64,000 nt of DNA from Reyranella aquatilis (GTDB lineage: Bacteria > Pseudomonadota > Alphaproteobacteria > Reyranellales > Reyranellaceae). The notes beneath the pieces are model-generated. The model ran no database searches and was not told the DNA's origin. It saw only the letters and a program-made list of their open reading frames with translations. The DNA is taken from positions 744,001-808,000 of the forward strand of contig NZ_JAJISD010000001.1 of NCBI RefSeq assembly GCF_020880995.1. Reading direction: 5' to 3'. Position numbers and translations under genes: made by a program. Shown here piece by piece: positions 19,038 through 41,420 of this stretch (position 1 is its first letter; each line of letters opens with the position of its first letter).

Positions 19038-20807
19038 CTACAGCTTCTCCAGCTCGTCGATGAAGCCCGAGATCACGTCGAGGCCCCTGTCCCAGAAAGC
19101 CGGATCCGAGGCGTCGAGGCCGAACGGCGCCAGCAGCTCCTTGTGCCGCTTCACGCCGCCTGAGCGCAGCATGTCGAGATACTTCTCCTGGAAGCCGTCG
19201 GGCTTGGCCTGGTAGGCCGCATAGAGCGAGTTCACCAGACAGTCGCCGAACGCGTAGGCGTACACATAGAACGGCGAATGGATGAAGTGGCCGATGTAGG
19301 ACCAATAGTACTTGTACTCGTCGTCGAAGGTGAACGCCGGACCGAGGCTCTCCTTTTGCACCGCCATCCAGATCTCGCCGATCGCGTCGGGCGTCAGTTC
19401 GCCCTCGCGACGCGCCATGTGCAGGCGCGATTCGAAGTCGTAGAAGGCGATCTGGCGAACGACGGTGTTCAGCATGTCCTCGACCTTGCCCGCCAGCATC
19501 GCCTTGCGCGTGGCCTTGTCGGGCGCGGTCTTGAGCAGCGACTGGAAGGTCAGCATCTCCCCGAACACCGAAGCCGTCTCCGCCAGGGTGAGCGGCGTGT
19601 CGGCCATCAGCGGGCCCTGCTTGGCCGCGAGGACCTGATGCACGCCATGGCCCAACTCATGGGCGAGCGTCATCACATCCCGCACCTTCCCCTGGTAGTT
19701 CAGCAGGAGATAGGGATGCGCCGACGGCACCGTCGGATGGGCGAAGGCGCCGGGCGACTTGCCGGGCCGCGCCGGCGCGTCGATCCAGCCGGTGCCGAAA
19801 AACTTCCGGCCGACATCGGCCAGCTCGGGAGAGAAGGCATTGTAGGCGTCGAGCACGATCTTCTCGGCCTCGGGCCAGGGAATCGTGCGGTCGTCGTGCT
19901 CCGGCAGCGGCGCGTTGCGGTCCCAATAGGGCATCGTCTCCACGCCGAACCACTTCGCCTTGAGCTTGTAGTAGCGATGCGCGAGTTTCGGATAAGCGGC
20001 CTTCACCGACTCCGCGAGCGCATCGACCACCTCGTCCTCGACCACGTTGGCCAGGTTGCGGAAGGATTGCGGCCGCGCGTACCTGCGCCAGCGATCGTCG
20101 ATCTCCTTGTCCTTGATCAGCGTGTTGGTGATCAGCGAGAAGATCGCGATGTTGTCGCCCTGGACCTTGCCGAACGACTTGGCGGCTTCCTTGCGCACCG
20201 TGGCGTCCTTGTTCGACAGCTTGTCGAGGATCTGCGGCTCGCTCAGCATTTCGTTGCGGAACGGATAGCGCAGCCGGGCGATCGTCTCGTCGAACAGGCG
20301 CGACCAGGCACTGCTGCCGACCACCGACTGGTCGTGCTGGAACTTCTCCAGTTCGTCGGACAGCTGATGCGGGCGGAACAGGCGCGCGTCGCGCAGCCAC
20401 GGCGCGTACTTGGCAAGCTCGGGCGCCTTCAGTTTCTCGGCGAGATCGGCATCCTCGATCTTGTTGATCTCCAGCCGGAAGAACAGGAGCTTCGAGCCGA
20501 TGTCGTTCAGCTTCTCGGAAATGTCCTGCGCGAAGCGGTTGCGCTCGGGGTCGGACTGGTCCTGCGCCGAGTAGAGCTGCGCATAGGACCCGATGCGGCC
20601 CAGCAGGTCGCTCATCGTTTCGAGACGGGCGATCGCCCCGCCCAGCCCCTTGCCGTCGAGGCCGGCGAGCCGGCCCTCGTAATCCTTCGAAAACGCATCC
20701 GCCTCGGAGGCGGCGCGCTTCAGGTCGGCGCCCAGGTCCGTCCCCGTCGGGCTGGAATAAAGGTCGCCCAGGTTCCAGGTCGGCAGGTCGCCCAACACAA
20801 CGTTCAT
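19038..20807 (-). CDS. pepF: Oligoendopeptidase F (M3 family)
   Basis: Cytosolic zinc metallopeptidase that degrades short peptides. The zinc site LAHELGHGVHQ (HExxH) is near residue 380, with the third ligand region ETASVFGEML downstream, both intact. Length 589 residues, matching the PepF clade found in alphaproteobacteria. First gene of the run pepF-ABC1 kinase-epimerase. Confidence 0.93.
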   Translation of the reverse strand: MNVVLGDLPTWNLGDLYSSPTGTDLGADLKRAASEADAFSKDYEGRLAGLDGKGLGGAIARLETMSDLLGRIGSYAQLYSAQDQSDPERNRFAQDISEKLNDIGSKLLFFRLEINKIEDADLAEKLKAPELAKYAPWLRDARLFRPHQLSDELEKFQHDQSVVGSSAWSRLFDETIARLRYPFRNEMLSEPQILDKLSNKDATVRKEAAKSFGKVQGDNIAIFSLITNTLIKDKEIDDRWRRYARPQSFRNLANVVEDEVVDALAESVKAAYPKLAHRYYKLKAKWFGVETMPYWDRNAPLPEHDDRTIPWPEAEKIVLDAYNAFSPELADVGRKFFGTGWIDAPARPGKSPGAFAHPTVPSAHPYLLLNYQGKVRDVMTLAHELGHGVHQVLAAKQGPLMADTPLTLAETASVFGEMLTFQSLLKTAPDKATRKAMLAGKVEDMLNTVVRQIAFYDFESRLHMARREGELTPDAIGEIWMAVQKESLGPAFTFDDEYKYYWSYIGHFIHSPFYVYAYAFGDCLVNSLYAAYQAKPDGFQEKYLDMLRSGGVKRHKELLAPFGLDASDPAFWDRGLDVISGFIDELEKL

Positions 20808-20858
20808 CGACTGACTCCTTGCATCGCTTCCCGATATGGGGCGCGACCGGCCACGTGC

Positions 20859-21383
20859 CTAGAGGCAGCGCCGGACCAGGCCGGCCCGATCTATCACGCT
20901 GGCCGGCTCGACGGACACCAGTTCGAAGCCATGCTCACGGTAGACACGCTCGTGCACCGCCTCGAAGCGCCGGGCGTCTTCCAGGGCGATCCGCCGCGCC
21001 GCCGTGGGCTGAATGAATCCCATGAGGCGCACGAAGAACACCTGACGCTCGTAAAATCCCGTGCGCTTCAGTTCCTGGATCTCCTGCAGCAGCAGGGCTG
21101 ACGGAGCGTGGCCGAGAAAGACCGCCAGTGCCTCGGTGCAGAAGGCAGACCGGTCATGGACCTGCGTCAGTCCCGCCGCGAGCCGCCGCCTTTGCCGCTG
21201 GAGGGTCACGATCCGGTCGATGAAGTCGGCATCGGTCCAGGGCTCGGGAACGCCCCTGGCCTGTTCGAGGGCGATGACGTCGGTCACCGCCTCTTCCACC
21301 ACCCCGATTCCGTCGACCTCGAGCTGCCGCAGCAGGGCCGTCTTCCCCGCTCCCGGCGCGCCGGTGAGGATGAAGCGGCGCAT
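20859..21383 (-). CDS. AAA_28-type P-loop ATPase/kinase
   Basis: A 174-residue nucleoside-triphosphate-binding protein. Walker A is GAPGAGKT (residues 8-15), and HDRSAFCTEAL carries a Walker B-like aspartate with arginine. These features fit the AAA_28 family of small predicted kinases, which have no settled substrate. Its ATG overlaps the stop of the epimerase gene upstream (TGATG), so it is translated from the same message. Confidence 0.8.
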   Translation of the reverse strand: MRRFILTGAPGAGKTALLRQLEVDGIGVVEEAVTDVIALEQARGVPEPWTDADFIDRIVTLQRQRRRLAAGLTQVHDRSAFCTEALAVFLGHAPSALLLQEIQELKRTGFYERQVFFVRLMGFIQPTAARRIALEDARRFEAVHERVYREHGFELVSVEPASVIDRAGLVRRCL

Positions 21384-22357
21384 CAGAGCCGGTTGTAGGC
21401 CTTGAACCAGTCGACGAAGAGCGGAATGCCCCGGTCGACGGTCACCTGGGGCGACCAGCCGAGATCGCGCACGGTGCTTCCGATGTCGGCCGCGGTTTCC
21501 TGCATGTCGCCCGGCTCGCCGGGCTTCAGCTCGATCGTGGCCTTGCGGCCCAGCGCCGCCTCGAACAGGCCGATGACGTGCAGGATCTCCTCGCTGCGCG
21601 ACGCGCCGAGATTGTAGAGCCGGTGGCCGGCTGCCCCGGGAGGTCTGTCGAGCGCCGCCAGCGTCCCGGAGACGATGTCGTCGATGTAGCTGAAATCCCG
21701 CCTCACCTTGCCTTGGTGATAGAGGTCGATCTTTCGGCCATCGTGGATCGCCCGCGCGAAGATGTAGGGCGACATGTCAGGCCGGCCCCACGGCCCGTAG
21801 ACCGTGAAATAGCGCAGCCCGGTGGCCTTCAGGCCGTACTGGTGGACGTAGGTCTCGGTAATCAACTCGTCGGCCCGCTTGGTCGCCGCATAGAGCGAGA
21901 CCGGACGGTCCACCGGATCCTCCACCGCGAAGGGGATTTTGGTGTTGCCGCCATACACCGAGGAAGACGAGGCATAGACCAAGTGCCTGAGCCGGGGCCC
22001 CAGCCGGCGCGCCAGTTCGAGCAGGATCACCTGCCCCATCAGGTTGGTCTGGACATAGATGTAGGGATCGACCTTGGAGTGCCGGACACCGGGCTGCGCG
22101 GCGAGGTGCACGATCCGGTCGATGTCGTCGTGCCGGGCGGACAGGCCCTCCATCGCCGCACGGTCCGACACATCCGCTTCGAGGAAAGTGAATCCCGGCG
22201 TCTCCCGCAGCGGTTTCAGCCGGGCGAACTTGAGGATCGGGTCGTAGTAGTCGCTGAAATTGTCCACGCCGATCACGGTCTCGCCTCGCGCGAGCAGGGC
22301 GCGGGCGACATGCGAGCCGATGAAGCCGGCGACGCCGGTGACGAGGACTGAACTCAT
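21383..22357 (-). CDS. UDP-glucuronate 4-epimerase-like NAD-dependent epimerase
   Basis: Extended SDR enzyme of 324 residues with TGVAGFIGSH (NAD binding), GVDNFSDYYDP, YASSSSVYGGN and catalytic YAATKRADE. The blocks QPGVRHS and RYFTVYGPWGRPDM are typical of UDP-glucuronate 4-epimerases (CapI/LpsL type), which provide UDP-galacturonate for envelope polysaccharide. Same transcript as the AAA_28 protein. Confidence 0.88.
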   Translation of the reverse strand: MSSVLVTGVAGFIGSHVARALLARGETVIGVDNFSDYYDPILKFARLKPLRETPGFTFLEADVSDRAAMEGLSARHDDIDRIVHLAAQPGVRHSKVDPYIYVQTNLMGQVILLELARRLGPRLRHLVYASSSSVYGGNTKIPFAVEDPVDRPVSLYAATKRADELITETYVHQYGLKATGLRYFTVYGPWGRPDMSPYIFARAIHDGRKIDLYHQGKVRRDFSYIDDIVSGTLAALDRPPGAAGHRLYNLGASRSEEILHVIGLFEAALGRKATIELKPGEPGDMQETAADIGSTVRDLGWSPQVTVDRGIPLFVDWFKAYNRL

Positions 22358-22531
22358 GCCGGCGGACGATTACAACATTTCACCCGGAGGAGACACCGTG
22401 AAACGGCAAGGCCACTTCGGCCCTGGTGGGCGGACGTAAAACGTCGTTTTTCGATCGCCGCTCCGTTCCGCATTGCCCGCAGCGTGCAAACGTCGCTACC
22501 GTCCCCATATTGAAATGTCAGGGAGGTTGCC

Positions 22532-25500
22532 ATGCCCCTCGCGGTGACCCTGGACGACAAGTACATCCTTGAAAAAGGTCGCGTTTACCTGACCGGGACG
22601 CAGGCGCTGGTGCGCCTCCCCATGATGCAGCGCCAGCGGGACGTTGCCGCCGGGCTGAATACAGGCGGCTACATTTCCGGCTATCGCGGTTCGCCGCTCG
22701 GCGGCTTCGACCAGGCCCTGTGGCAGGCCAAGAAATTCATCAAGAAAAGCCATATCGAGTTTCAGCCGGGCACCAACGAGGACCTGGCCGCCACCGCCCT
22801 GTGGGGCACCCAGCAGATCCACCTCTACCCCGGCGCGCGTTACGATGGCGTGTTCGGCATCTGGTACGGCAAGGGCCCCGGCGTCGACCGCTCGGGCGAC
22901 GTGTTCAAGCACGCCAACTATGCCGGCACCTCCAAGCATGGCGGCATCGTGGCCCTCGCGGGCGACGACCACATGGCGAAATCTTCGACCGTGGCCCATC
23001 AGAGCGAGCCGGCCTTCATGTCGGCCGGCATGCCGGTCATCCACCCCGCCAGCGTCCAGGAATATCTCGACTGGGGCCTGCACGCCTTCGCGATGTCGCG
23101 CTATTCGGGCCTGTGGGTCGCCTTCAAGGTGCTGAGTGAGACGGTCGACAGCTCGGCCTCGGTCTACATCGATCCGCACCGGGTCGAGATCCACACCCCT
23201 ACCGACTTCGTCCTGCCGCCCGACGGCGTGCATATCCGCTGGCCCGACGACTGGCTGGGCCAGGAGCGCCGCGTCGTCACGGTGAAGCAGCCCGCGGCGC
23301 TCGCCTACTGGCGCGCCAACCGGCTCGACCGGCTGATGCTGGGCCGCCCCGACGCCCGGTTCGGCATCGTCACCGTCGGCAAGTCCTATCTCGACGTGCG
23401 CCAGGCGCTCGACGAGCTGGGCATCGCCGACGCGGAAGCCGAGGCGCTCGGCCTCGCCATCTACAAGGTCGGCATGGTCTGGCCGCTCGAGACCGAGGGC
23501 GCCACCGCCTTCGCCACGGGCAAGCGCGAGATCCTCGTGATCGAGGAGAAGCGCAACCTGATCGAGCAGCAGCTCAAGGAAGCGCTGTTCAACGCCCCGG
23601 CCGACCGCCGCCCCGTCGTGGTCGGCAAGACCGACGAGCGCGGCCAGAAGCTGCTCAGGACCGACGGCGAGCTCACGCCGTTCGAGATCGCCTCGGCGAT
23701 CGTCGCGCGCTTCGGTCTCGAGTCCTTCAGCGGCCGCACGAAGGAGCGCTTCGAGGCGCTGAAGCGCCGCGCCGGCCGCCAGGTGCGCAACGAGGCCGGC
23801 CTCGCCCGCGTCCCCTATTTCTGCTCCGGCTGCCCGCACAACAGCTCGACCAAGGTGCCGGACGGCTCGATGGCCATGGCCGGCATCGGCTGCCATACGC
23901 TGGCCATCGGCATGGAGCGCAACACCAAGACCTTCACCCACATGGGCGCCGAGGGCGCGCCGTGGGTCGGCGCCAGCCACTTCACCGACATGCCGCACGT
24001 CTTCCAGAACCTGGGCGACGGCACCTATTTCCATTCGGGCTATCTCGCGATCCGGCACGCGGTCGCGACCAACACCAACATCACCTACAAGATCCTCTAC
24101 AACGACGCCGTCGCCATGACCGGCGGCCAGCCGCACGACGGAAACGTACATCCCTGGACCATCAGCCAGCAGGTCTACGCCGAGGGCGTGCGCCGCATCG
24201 CGCTGGTCAGCGACGAGCCCGACAAGTACCCGCTCGGCACCGAATGGGCGCCGCATGTCAGCTTCCATCACCGCGACCAGCTCGACGAGGTCCAGCGCGA
24301 GCTGCGCGACTACAAGGGCGTCTCGGTCCTGATCTACGACCAGACCTGCGCCGCCGAGAAGCGCCGCCGCCGCAAGCGCGGCACCTTCCCCGATCCCAAC
24401 AAGCGCCTCTTCATCAACGAGGCGGTGTGCGAGGGCTGCGGCGACTGCTCGGTGAAGTCGAACTGCCTCTCGGTCGTGCCGGTCGAGACCGAGTTCGGCC
24501 GCAAGCGCGCCATCGACCAGTCCTCCTGCAACAAGGACTTCTCCTGCCAGAACGGCTTCTGCCCCTCCTTCGTGAGTGTCGAGGGCGGATCGCTGCGCAA
24601 GGGCAAGGCGGTCACGGCGAAGAAGACCGATGCCGCGGCCAAGCCTGCCGAACCCGAGATGCCGGCCGCGCCGGCGCTGCCGTCGGTCGAGGACAGGCCC
24701 TATGGCGTCCTCATCACCGGCATCGGCGGCACCGGCGTCGTCACCATCGGCGCCATCATGGGCATGGCCGCCCATATCGAGGGCAAGGGCGCGACCGTGC
24801 TCGACCAACTCGGCATGGCGCAGAAGGGCGGCGCGGTGATCAGCCACGTGCGCATCGGCGCCACCCCCGAGGCGCTGCACGCCGTGCGCCTGGCCGCCGG
24901 CGGCGCCAACGTGCTTTTAGGCTGCGACCTGGTCGTCAGCGCCAGCCCCAACGCGCTGGCGAGCCTCGAGCCCGGCGTCTCGCGCGCCGTCGTCAACACG
25001 CACGAGACCATCACCGGCGAGTTCACCCGCCATCCCGACCTCGCCTTCCCGGCCAACACCTTGAAGCTCTCGGTCGAAGCCGCGGCCGGCGCCGATGCGG
25101 TCGAGTTCCTCGACGCGACCGGCATCGCCACGGCGCTGATGGGCGATTCGATCGCCACCAACATGTTCGTCCTGGGCTACGCCTATCAAAAGGGCCTGAT
25201 CCCCCTCGCCCATGAGTCGATCGAGCGCGCCATCGAGCTGAACGGCGCCGCTGTGCCGATGAACCTCGCCGCCTTCCGCTGGGGCCGCCGCGCCGCCGCC
25301 GACCGCGCCGCCGTCGAGAAGCTGGTCGCACCCAAGGCGACGAAAGACAACGTCGTCGCCTTCACGCGCAGCCAGCCCAAGACGCTCGACGAGATCGTGG
25401 CCTCGCGCACGAAGCACCTGACCGGCTACCAGAACGCGGCACTGGCCCAGCGCTACAAGGCGCTGGTCGACAAAGTGCGCGCCGCCGAGCAGAAGATCGG

Positions 25501-36602: not shown

Positions 36603-37250
36603 TCACCTCGCCGGGGTGAGCCACGTGTCGATGTCCTTGGTCAGCGGCAGGCCTGCCGTCTCGGCGAGGACGCGATGCCCCATGCCGGCCCCGACCATGA
36701 ACGCCTCCTGATGCGGCAGTGCGTTGGTCTTCAACATCGAGCGGATCGTCCCACCGTCGTGTCCCCAACCCACCGCCTCGACCTTGCCGTCGAAAGCACG
36801 GTTGAGGATGGACAGGAATTCCGCGCGCTCCTCCTCGGAAAGCCCCGGAACGGCGTCGATGTCGCCCAGGACGAACAGGCGTCCCCGGAACTTGGCCACA
36901 AGCTCAGCGGTCGAATTGCGCGGCTCGACGATGATTTCGCGGTTCGGACCGCGGCGCACGCGGGCTGCCAGCGACAGCGGGATCACCGCGGCGCTGAGAT
37001 AGGAGCCCGAGTCCATGAAGGCCGAGGTGAGTTCACGATAGGTGATGCCCAGCCGCTCGGCCCGCTTCAGGCGCATCAACGCGACTTCCGGCTTCGGCGT
37101 CTTCCACGCCTTGGCGGCGGCACGACGCCACACCCAAGCCTCCCACGACATGTCGAAGGTCGGTCCGTTGTTGTGCCCGATGCCGGGACGGCGTAGCAGG
37201 ACCTCGACATTGGCGTGCCGGGTCGCAAGACGGTCGAAACGATCACCCAT
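36603..37250 (-). CDS. Hypothetical protein with GIGHNNGP motif
   Basis: Not recognised. The 215-residue soluble protein has a GIGHNNGPTFDMSWEAWVWRR segment (about residues 23-43); the GIGHNxGP motif recurs in uncharacterised alphaproteobacterial proteins. Later parts read RLFVLGDIDAVPGLSEEERAEFLSIL and end WLTPAR. No membrane segment or signal peptide. It is divergent from the TcuA-like gene (47 bp between starts). Confidence 0.7.
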   Translation of the reverse strand: MGDRFDRLATRHANVEVLLRRPGIGHNNGPTFDMSWEAWVWRRAAAKAWKTPKPEVALMRLKRAERLGITYRELTSAFMDSGSYLSAAVIPLSLAARVRRGPNREIIVEPRNSTAELVAKFRGRLFVLGDIDAVPGLSEEERAEFLSILNRAFDGKVEAVGWGHDGGTIRSMLKTNALPHQEAFMVGAGMGHRVLAETAGLPLTKDIDTWLTPAR

Positions 37251-37297
37251 TGCGCCTATTGTACCGCAAAATTAATGCCGGAATCGAGGAGCGAGGC

Positions 37298-38788
37298 GTG
37301 GACGATTTTCAGGTCGATGTGTTGGTGGTCGGTGCCGGAAACGCGGCAGCCTGTGCGGCTCTGGCGGCTCGCGAGACGGGCGCCTCGGTCGCCATGCTGG
37401 AAGCGGCCCCGGAAGCCGAGCGCGGCGGCAACAGCACGTACACAGCGGGCGCCATGCGCGTCGTCTTCCACGGCGTCGACGATCTGGTGCAGCTCTACGA
37501 CCTGACCGAGGACGAGAAGCGCGACGTCGATTTCGGCAGCTACACGGCCGACGAGTATCTCGATGACATGGGCCGCGTGACCAACTACCGCTGCGACCCC
37601 GAGCTGACCGACATCCTGATCGGCCGCAGCTTCGAGACGATGAAGTGGATGCGCTCCAAGGGCGTGCGCTTCCAGCCGTCCTATGGCCGCCAGGCCTTCA
37701 AGGTGAACGGCAAATACAAGTTCTGGGGCGGCCTCGCCGTCGAAGCGTGGGGTGGCGGACCGGGTCTCGTCGACCTCGAGCACAAGGCTGCGATCAAGGC
37801 CGGCATCCCGATCCACTACGAGACCGCAGCGGTGTCGCTGATCGAGGAGGATGGCGTCGTGCGCGGCGTCATCGCCCGGCACAAGGGCCGCAAGATCAGG
37901 ATCGGCGCCAAGGCGGTCGTGCTGGCTTGCGGGGGCTTCGAGAGCAACGCCGAGATGCGCACGCGCTATCTCGGCCCGACCTGGGATCTCGCCAAGGTCC
38001 GTGGCACCCGCTTCAATACCGGCGCCGGCATCAACATGGCGCTGGCGATCGGCGCCAAGCCGCACGGCAATTGGTCGGGCGGCCATGCCGTCGGCTGGGA
38101 CATGAATGCACCTGAGTTCGGCGACCTCGATGTCGGCGACAACTTCCAGAAGCACTCCTACCCGCTCGGCATCATGGTCAACGCCAACGGACTGCGCTTC
38201 GTCGACGAGGGCGCCGATTTCCGCAACTACACCTACGCCAAGTACGGGGCGGTTATCCTCGCCCAGCCGCAGCAGTTTGCGTGGCAGATCTTCGATTCGA
38301 AGGTGCTCGACAAGCTGCGCGACGAGTATCGCATCAAGCGCATGACCAAGGTTCGCGCCGACACCATCGAGGAGCTGGCGACAAAGCTCGAAGGCGTGAA
38401 CCAGGAGCAGTTCCTCAAGACCATCAAGGAATGGAATGCCGCGGTCATGACAGACGTGCCGTTCAACCCGGCGGTCAAGGATGGCCGAGGCACGCGCGGT
38501 CTCGCCGTGCCGAAGAGCAACTGGGCCAACACGATCGACCAGGCTCCGTTCGAGGCCTATGCCGTGACCTGCGGCCTTACGTTCACGTTCGGCGGCCTCA
38601 AGATCACCAACGAGGGCGAGGTCGAGAATACGGACGGCCAGCCGATCCCCGGCCTTTTCGCCGCGGGCGAGCTCGTCGGCGGGCTGTTCTATCACAACTA
38701 TCCCGGCGGGACGGGCCTCGTGTCCGGCGCCGTGCTGGGCAAGCTCGCGGGCGACGGGGCCGGCAAGTACGTCGCTGGCAAGAACTAG
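37298..38788 (+). CDS. tcuA: FAD-dependent tricarballylate dehydrogenase TcuA-like
   Basis: Flavoprotein of the fumarate reductase/succinate dehydrogenase-like FAD family. FAD-binding VDVLVVGAGNAAACAALAARETGASVAMLEAAP starts the protein, followed by RGGNSTYTAGAMR, the AVVLACGGFESN motif and the C-terminal GLFAAGELVGGLFYHNYPGGTGLVSGAVLG. This set matches tricarballylate dehydrogenase (TcuA), which makes cis-aconitate. I start at GTG 37298 after GAGGAG (496 residues) instead of the 37250 extension. A Bug-type binding protein follows, as is usual for tricarboxylate genes. Confidence 0.83.
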   Translation: MDDFQVDVLVVGAGNAAACAALAARETGASVAMLEAAPEAERGGNSTYTAGAMRVVFHGVDDLVQLYDLTEDEKRDVDFGSYTADEYLDDMGRVTNYRCDPELTDILIGRSFETMKWMRSKGVRFQPSYGRQAFKVNGKYKFWGGLAVEAWGGGPGLVDLEHKAAIKAGIPIHYETAAVSLIEEDGVVRGVIARHKGRKIRIGAKAVVLACGGFESNAEMRTRYLGPTWDLAKVRGTRFNTGAGINMALAIGAKPHGNWSGGHAVGWDMNAPEFGDLDVGDNFQKHSYPLGIMVNANGLRFVDEGADFRNYTYAKYGAVILAQPQQFAWQIFDSKVLDKLRDEYRIKRMTKVRADTIEELATKLEGVNQEQFLKTIKEWNAAVMTDVPFNPAVKDGRGTRGLAVPKSNWANTIDQAPFEAYAVTCGLTFTFGGLKITNEGEVENTDGQPIPGLFAAGELVGGLFYHNYPGGTGLVSGAVLGKLAGDGAGKYVAGKN

Positions 38789-38890
38789 GCTGAACAACTC
38801 GCAGCACACTTGCTGCAAAGCCGGATTGGCTTCAAGGTCCGGGAAGTTCGCGCGACGCGGAGGAACTGCGCGCGCCTCAGGAGGAAGAAG

Positions 38891-39868
38891 ATGTCCAAGG
38901 TAACCCGACGTCACGCCCTGGCTCTCGGCGGCTCGTCCCTGTTGCTGCCGTCGGCCGTGCGCGCCCAGGCCAACTGGCCGGCCGGCCCGGTCACCTTCGT
39001 CGTCGGCTATGCCGCCGGCGGCAGCACCGACATCAACGCCCGCGAGCTGGCGCACGTCATGACGCCGGTCATCGGGCAGCAGATCATCATCGACAACAAG
39101 GGCGGCGCCGCAGGGTCGATCGGCCTGCGTGCCGTCGCCAACGCCAAGCCGGACGGCCAGACGCTGTTCGTCGCCGTCGGCACGAACGTGATCATCAACC
39201 CGCATGTCCAGAAGGGCATGATCGACACGCTCGCGGCCCTTGCGCCCATTTGCCAGATCACCGACTACCAGTACGTGCTGGTGGTCGGGAATACGGTTCC
39301 GGTGAAGAACGCGGCGGAACTCGTGGCCCTCGCGAAGAAGGACCCGGAAAAGCTCACCTATTCGTCGTCGGGCGTGGGCGGCAACAATCACCTCGCGGGA
39401 GCGCTGTTCGCGGATGCTGCCGGCATCAAGATCACCCACGTGCCGTACAAGGGCACAGGGCCGGCCGTCGCCGATGTGATCAGCGGCCAGATCACCATGA
39501 ACTTCTCGTCGCTGCCACCGGCGGTCTCCCAGGTCAAGGGCGGCAACCTCAAGGCGCTGGCGGTGACCGGCAACAAGCGCGTGAGCTCGCTGCCCGACGT
39601 GCCGACCCTGAAGGAACAGGGGATCGACGTGGTGGTCACCAGTTGGCAGGGCCTGTTCGCCCCGGCCAAGACCCCGCCCGACATCCTCGACAAGATCGAG
39701 AAGGCGGCCAAGGAAGGGATGAAGAACCCGAAATACGAAGAGGCCCTCGCCCGCGACGGGCTGGAAATGCCGCCGGAACGGACGCGCGCGCAGTTCGCCA
39801 AGTTCGTGGGCGAGGAACATGCCTTCTGGGGGACGACCCTGAAGAAGCTCAACATCCAGATGGAGTAG
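38891..39868 (+). CDS. Bug-family substrate-binding protein with Tat-type signal
   Basis: Periplasmic Bug/TctC protein of 325 residues. The signal peptide SKVTRRHALALGGSSLLLPSAVRAQ has a twin arginine, so export by Tat is likely. The mature part has the family blocks FVVGYAAGGSTDI, VIIDNKGGAAGSIG-type IIIDNKGGAAGSIGLR, TYSSSGVGGNNHLAGALF, THVPYKGTGPAV and LFAPAKTPPDI. ATG 38891 has an AGGAGGAAG site. Located directly after the TcuA-like gene, which suggests a carboxylate ligand. Confidence 0.9.
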   Translation: MSKVTRRHALALGGSSLLLPSAVRAQANWPAGPVTFVVGYAAGGSTDINARELAHVMTPVIGQQIIIDNKGGAAGSIGLRAVANAKPDGQTLFVAVGTNVIINPHVQKGMIDTLAALAPICQITDYQYVLVVGNTVPVKNAAELVALAKKDPEKLTYSSSGVGGNNHLAGALFADAAGIKITHVPYKGTGPAVADVISGQITMNFSSLPPAVSQVKGGNLKALAVTGNKRVSSLPDVPTLKEQGIDVVVTSWQGLFAPAKTPPDILDKIEKAAKEGMKNPKYEEALARDGLEMPPERTRAQFAKFVGEEHAFWGTTLKKLNIQME

Positions 39869-39970: not shown

Positions 39971-40828
39971 CTACCCGGGCTTTTTCGATTGCGCCTGCCT
40001 TTCGCGCCTCTCCTCACCCAGCTTCCTCAGGCGCTCGATCTCTTCCGGCTTCACGCGCCCGTAGCGTGGCCGCCAGTCGTCGTCGGACGGCCAGACGACC
40101 TCGGAGCGCTTGATCGTGCGCGGCGCCCGTGCGCTCCCGAGTAGATCGAGCGCCTGGCCGGCGATCACGCGCTGGAGGTCCCGGCGCCCCGGCGGACCGC
40201 ACGGATTACCGAGCGGAAAGTCCGTGAACAGGAAACGCGGCACGCCGCAATATTCGACGATGTCGCGGGCGGAGCCGACGATCACCGTCGGCATGCCGTT
40301 GGCTTCGAGATGACGGGCGACCAAACTCACGGTTTGGTGGCAGACGGGTCAAAGGGGACTGAGCAGGGCCGCGTCGGCGCCGTCGGCGCGCAGTCTCTCG
40401 AGCACCTGCGGCGCGTCGATCTCCATCGTCTTGCGCTGGCTGTATTCGGTCGGTACGCCATGAAACCGCTCGGCCAGCCCACCGACCATACCTTCCGCCA
40501 TCCGCTCCTGCAGGGCCTCGACCGGCAGGAAACTGGCCCGGTCGTCTGTGTGGGTCGATTCCTTGTCCCAAGCGAGGTTGTCTGTGAAGAGTTTGGCAGG
40601 CGCGGCAGAGATCGCTTCCGACCAGACCCGACGCTGGCCAGAGGCATCGCGATTCCCAAGGTCAGGTGGGCTTGCCGTCGTCACAAGCCCAATCCGCGCC
40701 TGCGACAGCGGCTTGTCGAGGCGTGCGAACGTTACGTCGTCGAAGTGGGCCCAGACATAGTCCGATGGATAGCCGAGCGCCCGGTAGTAATCCCTCGTGC
40801 GCTCCATGTAGCGGACAGTCTCGGTCAT
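39971..40828 (-). CDS. GrdB-like candidate selenoprotein (in-frame UGA = Sec160)
   Basis: A 285-residue protein related to glycine/sarcosine/betaine reductase selenoprotein B. The reading frame is uninterrupted from ATG 40828 to 39971 except for one TGA at 40349-40351. It sits in LLSPL-[TGA]-PVCHQTVSLVARHLE, at the place where family members have a redox Cys/Sec (UxxC). Downstream the frame continues with a typical GSARDIVEYCGVPRFLFTDFPLGNPCG region. A SECIS-like hairpin follows 10 bases after the TGA. If the TGA were a true stop, only a 159-residue fragment would be made. The gene lies 37 bp after the other candidate selenoprotein gene. Role likely thiol/selenol redox chemistry; substrate unknown. 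Confidence 0.86.
40320..40338 (-). other. SECIS-like hairpin of the GrdB-like gene
   Basis: Reading downstream of the TGA: ACCAAAC, loop CGUGA, GTTTGGT. The stem is 7 bp and perfect. With the U of UGA as 1, the stem spans 14-32 and the loop GU is at 22-23, close to G23-U24 of the E. coli fdhF SECIS. Confidence 0.75.
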
Positions 40829-40865
40829 CGTCTCCCCCCTTGGCAGCCTTCTTCTTGCGGCCAGT

Positions 40866-41420
40866 CTAACCGCGCTTCGGCACGATGCAGAAGCCCTGCG
40901 CCTCTATGCCGAGCGCTGGATTGAACTTGGAGCGGAAATTCTCCATCGCGATGGCCGCCGTCAGCTCGACGATCTGGGCCTCGGTGTAGTGCCGCTTGAG
41001 TTGCTCGACGAGCGCGTCGTCGACTTTCCGGTCCGTATAGGTGATCCGTTCGGCGTACTCGAGCGCCAGCCGCTCGGCTTCGCTGAAAAGCGCGCTGTCG
41101 CGCCACGTCGTGACGTCCGCCAGCTTCTCCATCCCGCCTTCCGTCGTTTCCAGCACACGGCTGGAATTGATATCAATTCAAAACGGGCAGCCGTTGATCG
41201 TCGCGACGCGGACATAGAGCAGCGCCGGCAGGCCCTTGGGCAGCAGACCGGACTGCTCGATTGACTGGCCGAGCATGCCGGCGGCGCGCAGGATCGGCGG
41301 GCAGTGCGCCATCACCTTGGTCGGATTGAGCAGGCCGCCGAACATCTCGCGCTGCTTTTCGAAGGTGGCCTTCAGGATGGGATCGCCACCGTCTTCCTCG
41401 ATCTCGCTGACCCGCGCCAT
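40866..41420 (-). CDS. AhpD/carboxymuconolactone-decarboxylase-like candidate selenoprotein (in-frame UGA = Sec81)
   Basis: A 184-residue protein of the AhpD-like CMD family. The frame is open from ATG 41420 to TAA-side 40866 except for one TGA at 41178-41180, in ATINGCPF-[TGA]-IDINSSRVLE. Homologues have Cys here, forming the CxxC redox pair; the TGA would make CxxU (C78-P-F-U81). The C-terminal half (EAQIVELTAAIAMENFRSKFNPALG) is intact. A SECIS-like hairpin follows the TGA. AhpD-like selenoproteins with CxxU are known in bacteria. First gene of the candidate selenoprotein operon; expected function is peroxide/thiol reduction. Confidence 0.87.
41148..41166 (-). other. SECIS-like hairpin of the AhpD-like gene
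   Basis: Reading downstream of the TGA: TTCCAGC, loop CGUGU, GCTGGAA. The stem is 7 bp and perfect, spanning positions 15-33 from the U of UGA. The loop GU falls at 23-24, the same numbering as in the E. coli fdhF SECIS. Confidence 0.76.

What the first reader, a model, noticed from the sequence alone, without database searches (positions are those of the whole stretch)
39971..41420. Two-gene selenoprotein operon, hidden by in-frame UGA codons
Two neighbouring minus-strand genes each contain exactly one in-frame TGA, in each case where the protein family has a redox Cys. With read-through they make an AhpD-like protein of 184 residues and a GrdB-like protein of 285. Both have a SECIS-like hairpin just after the TGA. 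Two independent mutations at Cys positions of adjacent genes, each followed by a matching hairpin, is unlikely by chance. The pairing of a CxxU AhpD-like protein with a UxxC GrdB-like protein may be a joint selenium-based redox or detoxification unit that is not described as an operon as far as I know.
Basis: partly seen in the sequence, partly recalled or inferred. Interest (0 to 1): 0.93.

Follow-up and report, generated by a model that had tools for sequence, protein, structure and literature searches.

The report
Paired selenoprotein genes in one operon
Two neighbouring genes of a Reyranella-like bacterium each carry one conserved in-frame UGA codon followed by a conserved hairpin, so both likely make selenium-containing proteins, and the two are predicted to work as one redox pair, an arrangement that our literature searches did not find described.

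Summary
Confirmed. Minus-strand genes at 40866-41420 (AhpD-like, 184 aa, CPF-Sec81) and 39971-40828 (GrdB/PrdB-like, 285 aa, Sec160-PVC) each hold exactly one in-frame TGA. The genome has selA, selB, selD and tRNA-Sec. Of distinct genes read at these sites, 67 of 72 AhpD-like and 68 of 79 GrdB-like carry TGA, the rest Cys codons. A hairpin of at least 6 bp follows 59 of 67 and 66 of 68 TGA genes (6.4 and 1.4 expected from synonymous shuffles) but 1 of 5 and 0 of 11 Cys genes. Both are known selenoprotein families; nine literature searches found no AhpD+GrdB pair. The pair is clade-limited: 12 of 75 Reyranellaceae genomes, two lineages, one syntenic locus. Another GrdB-like gene of this genome precedes a class III CoA-transferase; a third follows a Prx-like selenoprotein gene. 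Most likely mechanism: the GrdB-like selenol attacks an activated C-X bond and the AhpD-like CxxU protein re-reduces it, as in GrdA/GrdB but without known pyruvoyl subunits. Sec decoding is strongly supported; the joint mechanism is inference. New variant of a known kind.

The parts
40866..41420 (-). AhpD-like (carboxymuconolactone-decarboxylase fold) selenoprotein gene, 184 aa with TGA read as Sec, TAG stop included
   Evidence: ORF with TGA=U; Pfam CMD PF02627 30.5 bits over cut-off 23; 67 relatives in named genomes
41178..41180 (-). in-frame TGA, Sec81 of the CPF-U motif
   Evidence: TGA in 67 of 72 distinct genes, TGC or TGT in the other 5
41148..41166 (-). SECIS-like hairpin TTCCAGC-CGTGT-GCTGGAA, 11 nt after the TGA
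   Evidence: hairpin in 59 of 67 TGA genes, 1 of 5 Cys genes; covariation; 44.5 bits, first in the genome-wide model search, the model containing this sequence
40829..40865 (-). 37-nt gap between the two genes with a Shine-Dalgarno-like GGGGGGAG before the second ATG
39971..40828 (-). GrdB/PrdB-like selenoprotein gene, 285 aa with TGA read as Sec, TAG stop included
   Evidence: ORF with TGA=U; best NCBIfam match PrdB TIGR04483, E 9.4e-20, under the cut-off; 4831 relatives among 7999 scored candidates
40349..40351 (-). in-frame TGA, Sec160 of the U-PVC motif
   Evidence: TGA in 68 of 79 distinct genes, Cys codons in the other 11; Cys in 120 of 120 listed database relatives
40320..40338 (-). SECIS-like hairpin ACCAAAC-CGTGA-GTTTGGT, 10 nt after the TGA
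   Evidence: hairpin in 66 of 68 TGA genes, 0 of 11 Cys genes; 41.5 bits in the genome-wide model search, the model containing this sequence
38810..39868 (+). context: TctC-type solute receptor, convergent neighbour of the pair
   Evidence: Pfam TctC PF03401, 229.5 bits; follows the AhpD-like gene, directly or after GrdB, as next recognised gene in 38 of 62 named loci with room
37250..38788 (+). context: FAD-dependent TcuA-like dehydrogenase
   Evidence: NF006130, 595.5 bits over cut-off 369
36603..37250 (-). context: 215-aa protein of unknown family, kept in the paired loci
   Evidence: no Pfam or NCBIfam match at E 0.001; present in L181-L185
35391..36587 (-). context: class III CoA-transferase, same strand as the pair
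   Evidence: Pfam CoA_transf_3, 373 bits; relatives follow other GrdB-like copies

Best explanation
Window 41420-39971 (minus strand) holds two adjacent genes, each with one conserved in-frame TGA at its family's Cys site and a conserved hairpin behind it, in a genome with selA, selB, selD and tRNA-Sec, so they likely make two selenoproteins, an AhpD-like CxxU protein and a GrdB/PrdB-like UxxC protein, that are predicted to be translated from one mRNA and to work as one selenium redox pair. Shown by sequence: frames, codon conservation, hairpins, machinery, synteny. Likely: SelB with Sec-tRNA reads both UGAs with the help of hairpins that share a CGUG loop. Inferred, untested: the GrdB-like Sec160-Cys163 site does the chemistry, a nucleophilic and then reductive cleavage of an activated C-X bond in a carboxylate or acyl-CoA substrate, leaving a Sec-Cys selenenylsulfide; the AhpD-like Cys78-Sec81 site, where the usual catalytic His is replaced by Asn, would re-reduce it, the part that GrdA's CxxU motif is thought to play beside GrdB's UxxC motif. 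Substrate supply would come from neighbours of the locus, a TctC receptor and a class III CoA-transferase. My confidence by step: Sec in both 0.97; one mRNA 0.8; joint redox pair 0.4; C-X cleavage 0.25.
For: Machinery: selB 456 bits over cut-off 242, tRNA-Sec 71.5 bits over 47, selD 295 over 125, selA 563 over 268 near fdhE and fdnI/H/G; fdnG has its own in-frame TGA. Sec/Cys alternation and hairpins; the best hairpin has a CGTG loop in 59 of 67 AhpD-like and 67 of 68 GrdB-like TGA genes. Covariation on 18 hairpins picked by eye: 98.3% of cells paired, 6 of 7 pairs with changes on both sides; 0 of 500 shuffles as high on paired share, double-change cells and score (10 and 14 of 500 on the other two measures); slid versions 29.4 to 48.7% paired. 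A model of this hairpin searched over the 6.0-Mb genome ranks both window sites and the second GrdB-like gene first (E 4.7e-9 to 5.2e-8; next 0.2). Selection: mean pN/pS before/after the TGA 0.24/0.30 (60 AhpD-like relatives) and 0.31/0.42 (32 GrdB-like). selB over the cut-off in 19 of 20 chosen genomes with a TGA copy (miss: one 77% complete) and in 1 of 10 chosen without one among listed matches (read). Pair at the same locus in two lineages of each tree. A second pair in the same genome: Prx-like (GSW-U-PYC) directly before a third GrdB-like gene. CoA-transferase III next after the second GrdB-like gene in 11 of 12 Reyranellaceae loci and after GrdB-like genes in 7 of 20 loci from other families. 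Analogy: GrdA CxxU with GrdB UxxC (PMC13188914, passages and section 9); Sec of a GrdB-like protein proposed to attack a C-F bond (PMC10838667, passages).
Against: The pair is limited: 12 of 75 family genomes by the rows; in the class samples no pair appears outside this family among the listed matches. Pairing needs at least 2 changes on the GrdB tree and 3 on the AhpD tree, where one contig-edge genome was labelled unpaired. TctC without GrdB between is the AhpD-like gene's commoner recognised neighbour, 29 of 62 named loci against 9 with GrdB, and other GrdB-like copies stand with CoA-transferase or Prx-like genes, so AhpD is not an obligate partner. The Prx-like pair was found in only 3 of 21 loci. 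Overall folding energy is ordinary. The fdnG hairpin, read by eye, has no CGTG loop. Of 6 listed database relatives covering the AhpD site 5 have neither Cys nor Sec (2 Trp, Gly, Ser, Leu). No Rfam match, no sigma-70-like promoter. The GrdB-like model is poor (pLDDT 69.5) and had no PDB match at E 0.001. GrdA and GrdE families gave no match in the genome, but no control genome rang either, so absence is not shown; PrdA was not searched.
Confidence: 0.55

Rival explanations
1. Two genuine selenoproteins that merely lie side by side in some lineages, without working together: AhpD-like belongs to the TctC/FAD locus and GrdB-like was inserted or kept there by chance.
For: 12 of 75 genomes have the pair; in named loci TctC without GrdB between is the next recognised gene in 29 of 62 against GrdB in 9, with none of the searched genes found in 18; GrdB-like relatives occur with other partners.
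Against: Same orientation, under 10 to about 40 nt apart, at the same syntenic place in two separate lineages; the same genome holds a second selenoprotein pair built on a GrdB-like gene.
Confidence: 0.38
2. The GrdB-like protein's true partner is the class III CoA-transferase; the locus serves acyl-CoA catabolism and the AhpD-like protein is a general thiol reductant.
For: CoA-transferase III is next after the second GrdB-like gene in 11 of 12 family loci and after GrdB-like genes in 7 of 20 loci from other families; a CoA-transferase III lies about 3.4 kb from the window's GrdB-like gene on the same strand.
Against: In the window TctC, FAD and a 215-aa gene lie between, two of them on the other strand; none of the 16 orthologous GrdB-like loci L150-L165 has a CoA-transferase next door, 4 having one 3 to 5 kb away.
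Confidence: 0.3
3. The TGAs are sequencing errors, or the genes are decaying pseudogenes.
For: In the protein database 114 of the 120 listed AhpD-like relatives do not cover the site, at least 105 of them aligning from the residue after it, as if the gene began behind the TGA.
Against: The same TGA in 67 and 68 distinct genes from many assemblies, no TAA or TAG among the codons read at the site, hairpin tied to it, low pN/pS on both sides.
Confidence: 0.01
4. UGA is read as Trp or by general read-through, not as Sec.
For: 2 of the 6 listed database relatives that cover the AhpD site show Trp there, perhaps from another translation table.
Against: Cys codons are the only alternative in the DNA read, the hairpin goes with TGA, the Sec machinery is present and goes with the TGA form.
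Confidence: 0.01

Closest known systems
grdA-grdB operon of clostridial glycine reductase
   Same: Two neighbouring selenoprotein genes, one CxxU and one UxxC; GrdB homology of the second gene; PMC13188914 passages of section 7 and whole section 9; a reference title in PMC9312934 names a grdAB operon with two in-frame TGA codons.
   Different: The CxxU partner is AhpD-like, not GrdA; the GrdB-like protein is 285 aa against 431-435 model positions and falls under each Grd/Prd cut-off listed; no GrdE/GrdA match in the genome, though controls were silent.
AhpD-like selenoproteins (COG2128/YciW, CxxU) of marine metagenomes
   Same: CMD fold, CxxU, widespread Cys homologues (PMC1088965, PMC2398784, PMC9312934, passages). 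That this protein belongs to COG2128 rests on its NCBIfam relatives, not on a COG search.
   Different: Scores under the NCBIfam cut-offs of TIGR01926 and of NF053654 'YciW-related (seleno)protein'; catalytic His replaced by Asn (against PMC3141380, passages).
PrdB-type UxxC selenoproteins of marine metagenomes
   Same: UxxC, many Sec members in sea water samples (PMC1088965, PMC2398784, passages), PrdB as best NCBIfam family.
   Different: 71 bits against a cut-off of 300, so not PrdB itself; no proline reductase gene recognised nearby.
Prx-like/AhpD-like and Prx/SelW neighbouring selenoprotein genes in GOS reads
   Same: Two redox selenoprotein genes side by side (PMC2398784, passage).
   Different: Other partner; no GrdB-like gene.
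farB of Cloacibacillus (GrdB-like fluoroacetate reduction)
   Same: GrdB-related selenoprotein proposed to attack a C-X bond (PMC10838667, passages).
   Different: Anaerobe with a GrdE-type partner and a glycine reductase system (same passages).

Membership tests
bacterial selenoprotein (UGA-decoded Sec) | in-frame TGA at a family redox-Cys site, Cys homologues present | tested here: met
bacterial selenoprotein (UGA-decoded Sec) | SECIS hairpin directly after the TGA with G and U in the apical loop (loop rule recalled) | tested here: met
   loop CGUG; overall energy test negative
bacterial selenoprotein (UGA-decoded Sec) | selA, selB, selD, tRNA-Sec in the genome | tested here: met
bacterial selenoprotein (UGA-decoded Sec) | Sec found in the protein | not testable with these tools
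   needs 75Se labelling or mass spectrometry
AhpD-like / CMD family | CMD domain | tested here: met
   PF02627 30.5 bits over 23; fold match to AhpD PA0269, TM 0.86 by target length
AhpD-like / CMD family | CxxC (or CxxU) redox pair | tested here: met
   C78 and Sec81
AhpD peroxidase proper | His four residues after the second Cys (invariant in the proteins compared in PMC3141380) | tested here: not met
   Asn85 invariant in 16 of 16 aligned; passages
NF053654 YciW-related (seleno)protein | curated score cut-off 310 bits | tested here: not met
   135.7 bits
D-proline reductase PrdB (TIGR04483) | curated score cut-off 300 bits | tested here: not met
   71.1 bits
GrdB/PrdB superfamily | homology and UxxC motif | tested here: met
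   TIGR04483 E 9.4e-20, TIGR01918 E 7.1e-8; Sec160-x-x-Cys163, both columns invariant (U shown as C) in 27 aligned
glycine/proline reductase system | pyruvoyl subunit (GrdE/PrdA) and GrdA in the genome | tested here: inconclusive
   PF09338 and PF04723 gave no match, but no control genome rang either; PrdA not searched
selenoprotein operon | both genes on one transcript | not testable with these tools
   37-nt gap, same strand; no RNA data

The most novel reading that the evidence does not exclude
A pyruvoyl-free counterpart of the GrdA/GrdB pair in Alphaproteobacteria: the GrdB-like selenol cleaves C-X bonds of imported carboxylates or their CoA esters and a dedicated selenium redox partner recycles it. 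The partner is interchangeable (AhpD-like at the window locus, Prx-like at a second locus of the same genome), which would make GrdB-like proteins the constant core of a modular class of two-selenoprotein units.
Probability: 0.2. Interest if true: 0.85.

Novelty: new variant of a known kind. Interest (0 to 1): 0.58.

Why it matters
A 2006 survey stated that in Sec-decoding Alpha-, Beta- and Pseudomonadales Gammaproteobacteria FdhA is the only selenoprotein (PMC1794560, passage). This genome holds at least six Sec-type genes (AhpD-like, three GrdB-like, one Prx-like, fdnG), four of them in two side-by-side pairs. Of the 120 listed database relatives of the AhpD-like protein at least 105 align only from the residue after the UGA, so the pair is easily missed in gene tables. 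If the proteins do work together, the pair gives a tractable model for what GrdB/PrdB-like selenoproteins do in bacteria where no glycine or proline reductase was recognised.

Tried and rejected

Rows left out: trees used one row per distinct flank and at least 60% (AhpD) or 42% (GrdB) identity, plus 11 chosen database proteins on the GrdB tree; the covariation set was 18 of 135 distinct TGA genes, picked by eye; pN/pS used relatives of 60-96% identity with TGA; contexts were fetched for chosen genomes, not all; searches do not list their weakest matches.

Full report
Observation. The minus strand of 39971-41420 holds two frames that stay open if one TGA in each is read through. The first, 41420 to 40866, gives 184 aa with motif INGCPF-U-IDIN; the second, 40828 to 39971, gives 285 aa with ALLSPL-U-PVCHQT. 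Without read-through they are listed as 80+96 aa and 159+119 aa pieces. The TGA codons are at 41180-41178 and 40351-40349 and the genes are 37 nt apart.

Families. The first protein has a CMD (carboxymuconolactone decarboxylase/AhpD) domain over the Pfam cut-off (30.5 against 23). In NCBIfam its best family is 'YciW-related (seleno)protein' NF053654, at 135.7 bits against a cut-off of 310. The second protein is related to PrdB (TIGR04483, E 9.4e-20, 71 bits against 300) and more weakly to GrdB; it has no Pfam match at E 0.001. AlphaFold gives a usable model for the first (pLDDT 77; nearest AhpD PA0269) and a weak one for the second (pLDDT 69.5).

Sec machinery. The genome (6.0 Mb, 99.8% complete, 28 contigs) has selB at C12:21331-23175 (456 bits, cut-off 242), tRNA-Sec at C12:20769-20860 (71.5 bits, gathering 47), selA, fdhE and fdnI/H/G in the same region, selD at C8 (295 bits, cut-off 125). 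The fdnG gene has its own in-frame TGA; by eye a hairpin follows, but its loop is not CGTG. Nearest named relatives of the first protein are Rhodospirillaceae and Reyranella metagenome bins at 94-95% identity.

Conservation at the codons. Over the loci held, distinct genes were: AhpD-like 67 TGA, 3 TGC, 2 TGT (72); GrdB-like 68 TGA, 9 TGC, 2 TGT (79); paralogues down to about 29% (AhpD) and 33% (GrdB) identity are included. The protein database, which can hardly hold Sec, shows Cys in 120 of 120 listed GrdB-like relatives, several named Bradyrhizobium. Of the 120 listed AhpD-like relatives, 114 do not cover the site, at least 105 of them aligning from the residue after it, that is, probably cut at the UGA; of the 6 that cover it 1 has Cys, 2 Trp, and one each Gly, Ser, Leu, which I cannot explain beyond other translation tables or diverged copies. 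On the GrdB tree Sec and Cys change at least 7 times, and the chosen database Cys copies, Bradyrhizobium among them, lie inside a Sec group (SH-aLRT 81 to 99 on that path).

Hairpins. A hairpin of at least 6 bp with loop 4-6 at the SECIS place occurs in 59 of 67 AhpD-like and 66 of 68 GrdB-like TGA genes; synonymous shuffles give 6.39 and 1.37. In Cys genes it occurs in 1 of 5 (0.11 expected) and 0 of 11 (0.22 expected). The best hairpin has a CGTG loop in 59 of 67 and 67 of 68 TGA genes. On 18 chosen hairpins of both families 98.3% of cells pair, 6 of 7 pairs show changes on both sides, and sliding the partner by 1-3 columns drops pairing to 29-49%. Searched over the genome, the model of these hairpins ranks the two window sites and the second GrdB-like gene first, E 4.7e-9, 3.6e-8 and 5.2e-8, next 0.2; the model includes the window's own sequences, so the first two are expected. 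Against: total folding energy of the 42 nt is ordinary, and no Rfam family matches.

Constraint and machinery together. Mean pN/pS is 0.24 before and 0.30 after the TGA in 60 AhpD-like relatives, 0.31 and 0.42 in 32 GrdB-like ones, so the part after the TGA appears to be translated in frame. In 30 chosen genomes, selB over the cut-off is found in 19 of 20 with at least one TGA copy (the miss, G085, is 77% complete) and in 1 of 10 without a TGA copy among the listed matches (codon states).

Where the pair occurs. In 75 Reyranellaceae genomes, 68 hold a TGA-bearing AhpD-like gene at 63% identity or more, and 38 hold a GrdB-like gene at 60% or more, each with one TGA (counted from the rows). The two lie side by side in 12 (G000, G010, G017, G021, G025, G027, G038, G052, G058, G064, G066, G067; in G058 the AhpD gene is cut by the contig start); in G046 the contig ends inside the GrdB gene (L021, which has the same geometry). 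G038 is not in the window's clade on either tree, yet has the same order CoA-transferase, 215-aa gene, FAD enzyme, TctC, GrdB, AhpD, serA (L185), with under 10 nt between the two genes. Either the pair is old and was broken up in other lineages, or it formed twice at one place. In samples of 385 genomes of the class, GrdB relatives occur in 52 and close AhpD relatives (E 1e-25) in 16, with no pair outside the family among the listed matches. Of 62 named AhpD loci with at least 1.5 kb downstream (of 67), the first gene recognised with my seven neighbour queries is TctC in 29 (16 loci have it within 600 bp), GrdB followed by TctC in 9, none in 18, others in 6.

Other partners of GrdB-like proteins. 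The second GrdB-like gene of this genome (C25:36166-36993, TGA, 47%) is followed on the same strand by a class III CoA-transferase, as in 11 of 12 such loci in the family; L178 is the exception, and L180 keeps the order although its gene has Cys. In 20 loci from other families 7 show the same order. A third GrdB-like gene (C13, 390 aa, TGA) directly follows a Prx-like gene with GSW-U-PYC. In 21 loci of this third type the Prx-like neighbour, with TGA, was found in 3 (G000, G010, G056), and the third type itself carries TGA in 18 and Cys in 3. So in one genome GrdB-like selenoproteins stand twice beside a thiol-redox selenoprotein.

How it most likely works. Shown: two Sec-type genes, machinery, hairpins, synteny. 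Likely: SelB-dependent insertion of Sec at both sites from one mRNA. Inferred: GrdB/PrdB chemistry uses the selenol to attack an activated carbon (glycine reductase; proposed for C-F in fluoroacetate, PMC10838667), leaving an oxidised Sec-Cys site. In glycine reductase GrdA, a CxxU protein, is thought to interact with the UxxC site of GrdB (PMC13188914). Here the CxxU protein beside the UxxC protein is AhpD-like. It lacks the His that is invariant in the AhpD proteins compared in PMC3141380 (Asn85, 16 of 16), which argues against a plain peroxidase and leaves the dithiol-reductase part. TctC and CoA-transferase neighbours point to a carboxylate or acyl-CoA substrate. The weakest step is that the two proteins act on each other.

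What is known. AhpD-like CxxU (COG2128/YciW) and PrdB/GrdB UxxC are listed selenoprotein families (PMC1088965, PMC2398784, PMC9312934, PMC13188914; passages). Selenoprotein operons named in PMC13188914 section 9 (whole section read) are grdA-grdB, prdB-prdC, frhA-frhD-hdrA with glpC, Prx/SELENOW-like, Prx-like/AhpD-like, SAO and Tso; AhpD with GrdB is not among them. Nine literature searches found no such pair. I file it as a new variant of a known kind: a two-selenoprotein operon with a new combination, clade-limited.

Noticed in passing
L245 (G000:C13:1-4000), 121-1976 minus: A second two-gene selenoprotein pair in the same genome: Prx-like with GSW-U-PYC directly followed by a 390-aa GrdB-like protein with U-PAC; the pair was found in 3 of 21 loci examined, the GrdB-like gene alone in the others.
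   Followed up: partly
L148:5146-7252 (G000:C25:36145-38251): A GrdB-like selenoprotein gene followed by a class III CoA-transferase, an order seen in 11 of 12 family loci and 7 of 20 loci of other families, Cys copies included.
   Followed up: partly
L064:2359-2889 minus: A second, distant AhpD-like gene with a TGA at the redox site (GCNY-U) near the AhpD-like selenoprotein gene of a Burkholderiales bin.
   Followed up: no
L189:775-2406 (G032:C199): Two GrdB-like genes in tandem, both with TGA.
   Followed up: no
L180 (G064:C24) and database proteins P0012, P0026: Cys copies nested among Sec relatives, with the hairpin lost where the DNA was seen (L180): likely Sec-to-Cys changes.
   Followed up: partly
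database proteins P0122-P0124, P0202, P0225: AhpD-like relatives with Trp, Gly, Ser or Leu in place of Sec or Cys at the redox site.
   Followed up: no
L087 and L149 (G000:C12): selB and tRNA-Sec lie apart (selB 21331-23175, tRNA-Sec 20769-20860), unlike the nested arrangement reported for other Alphaproteobacteria (PMC8124441, abstract in the listing and passages).
   Followed up: no
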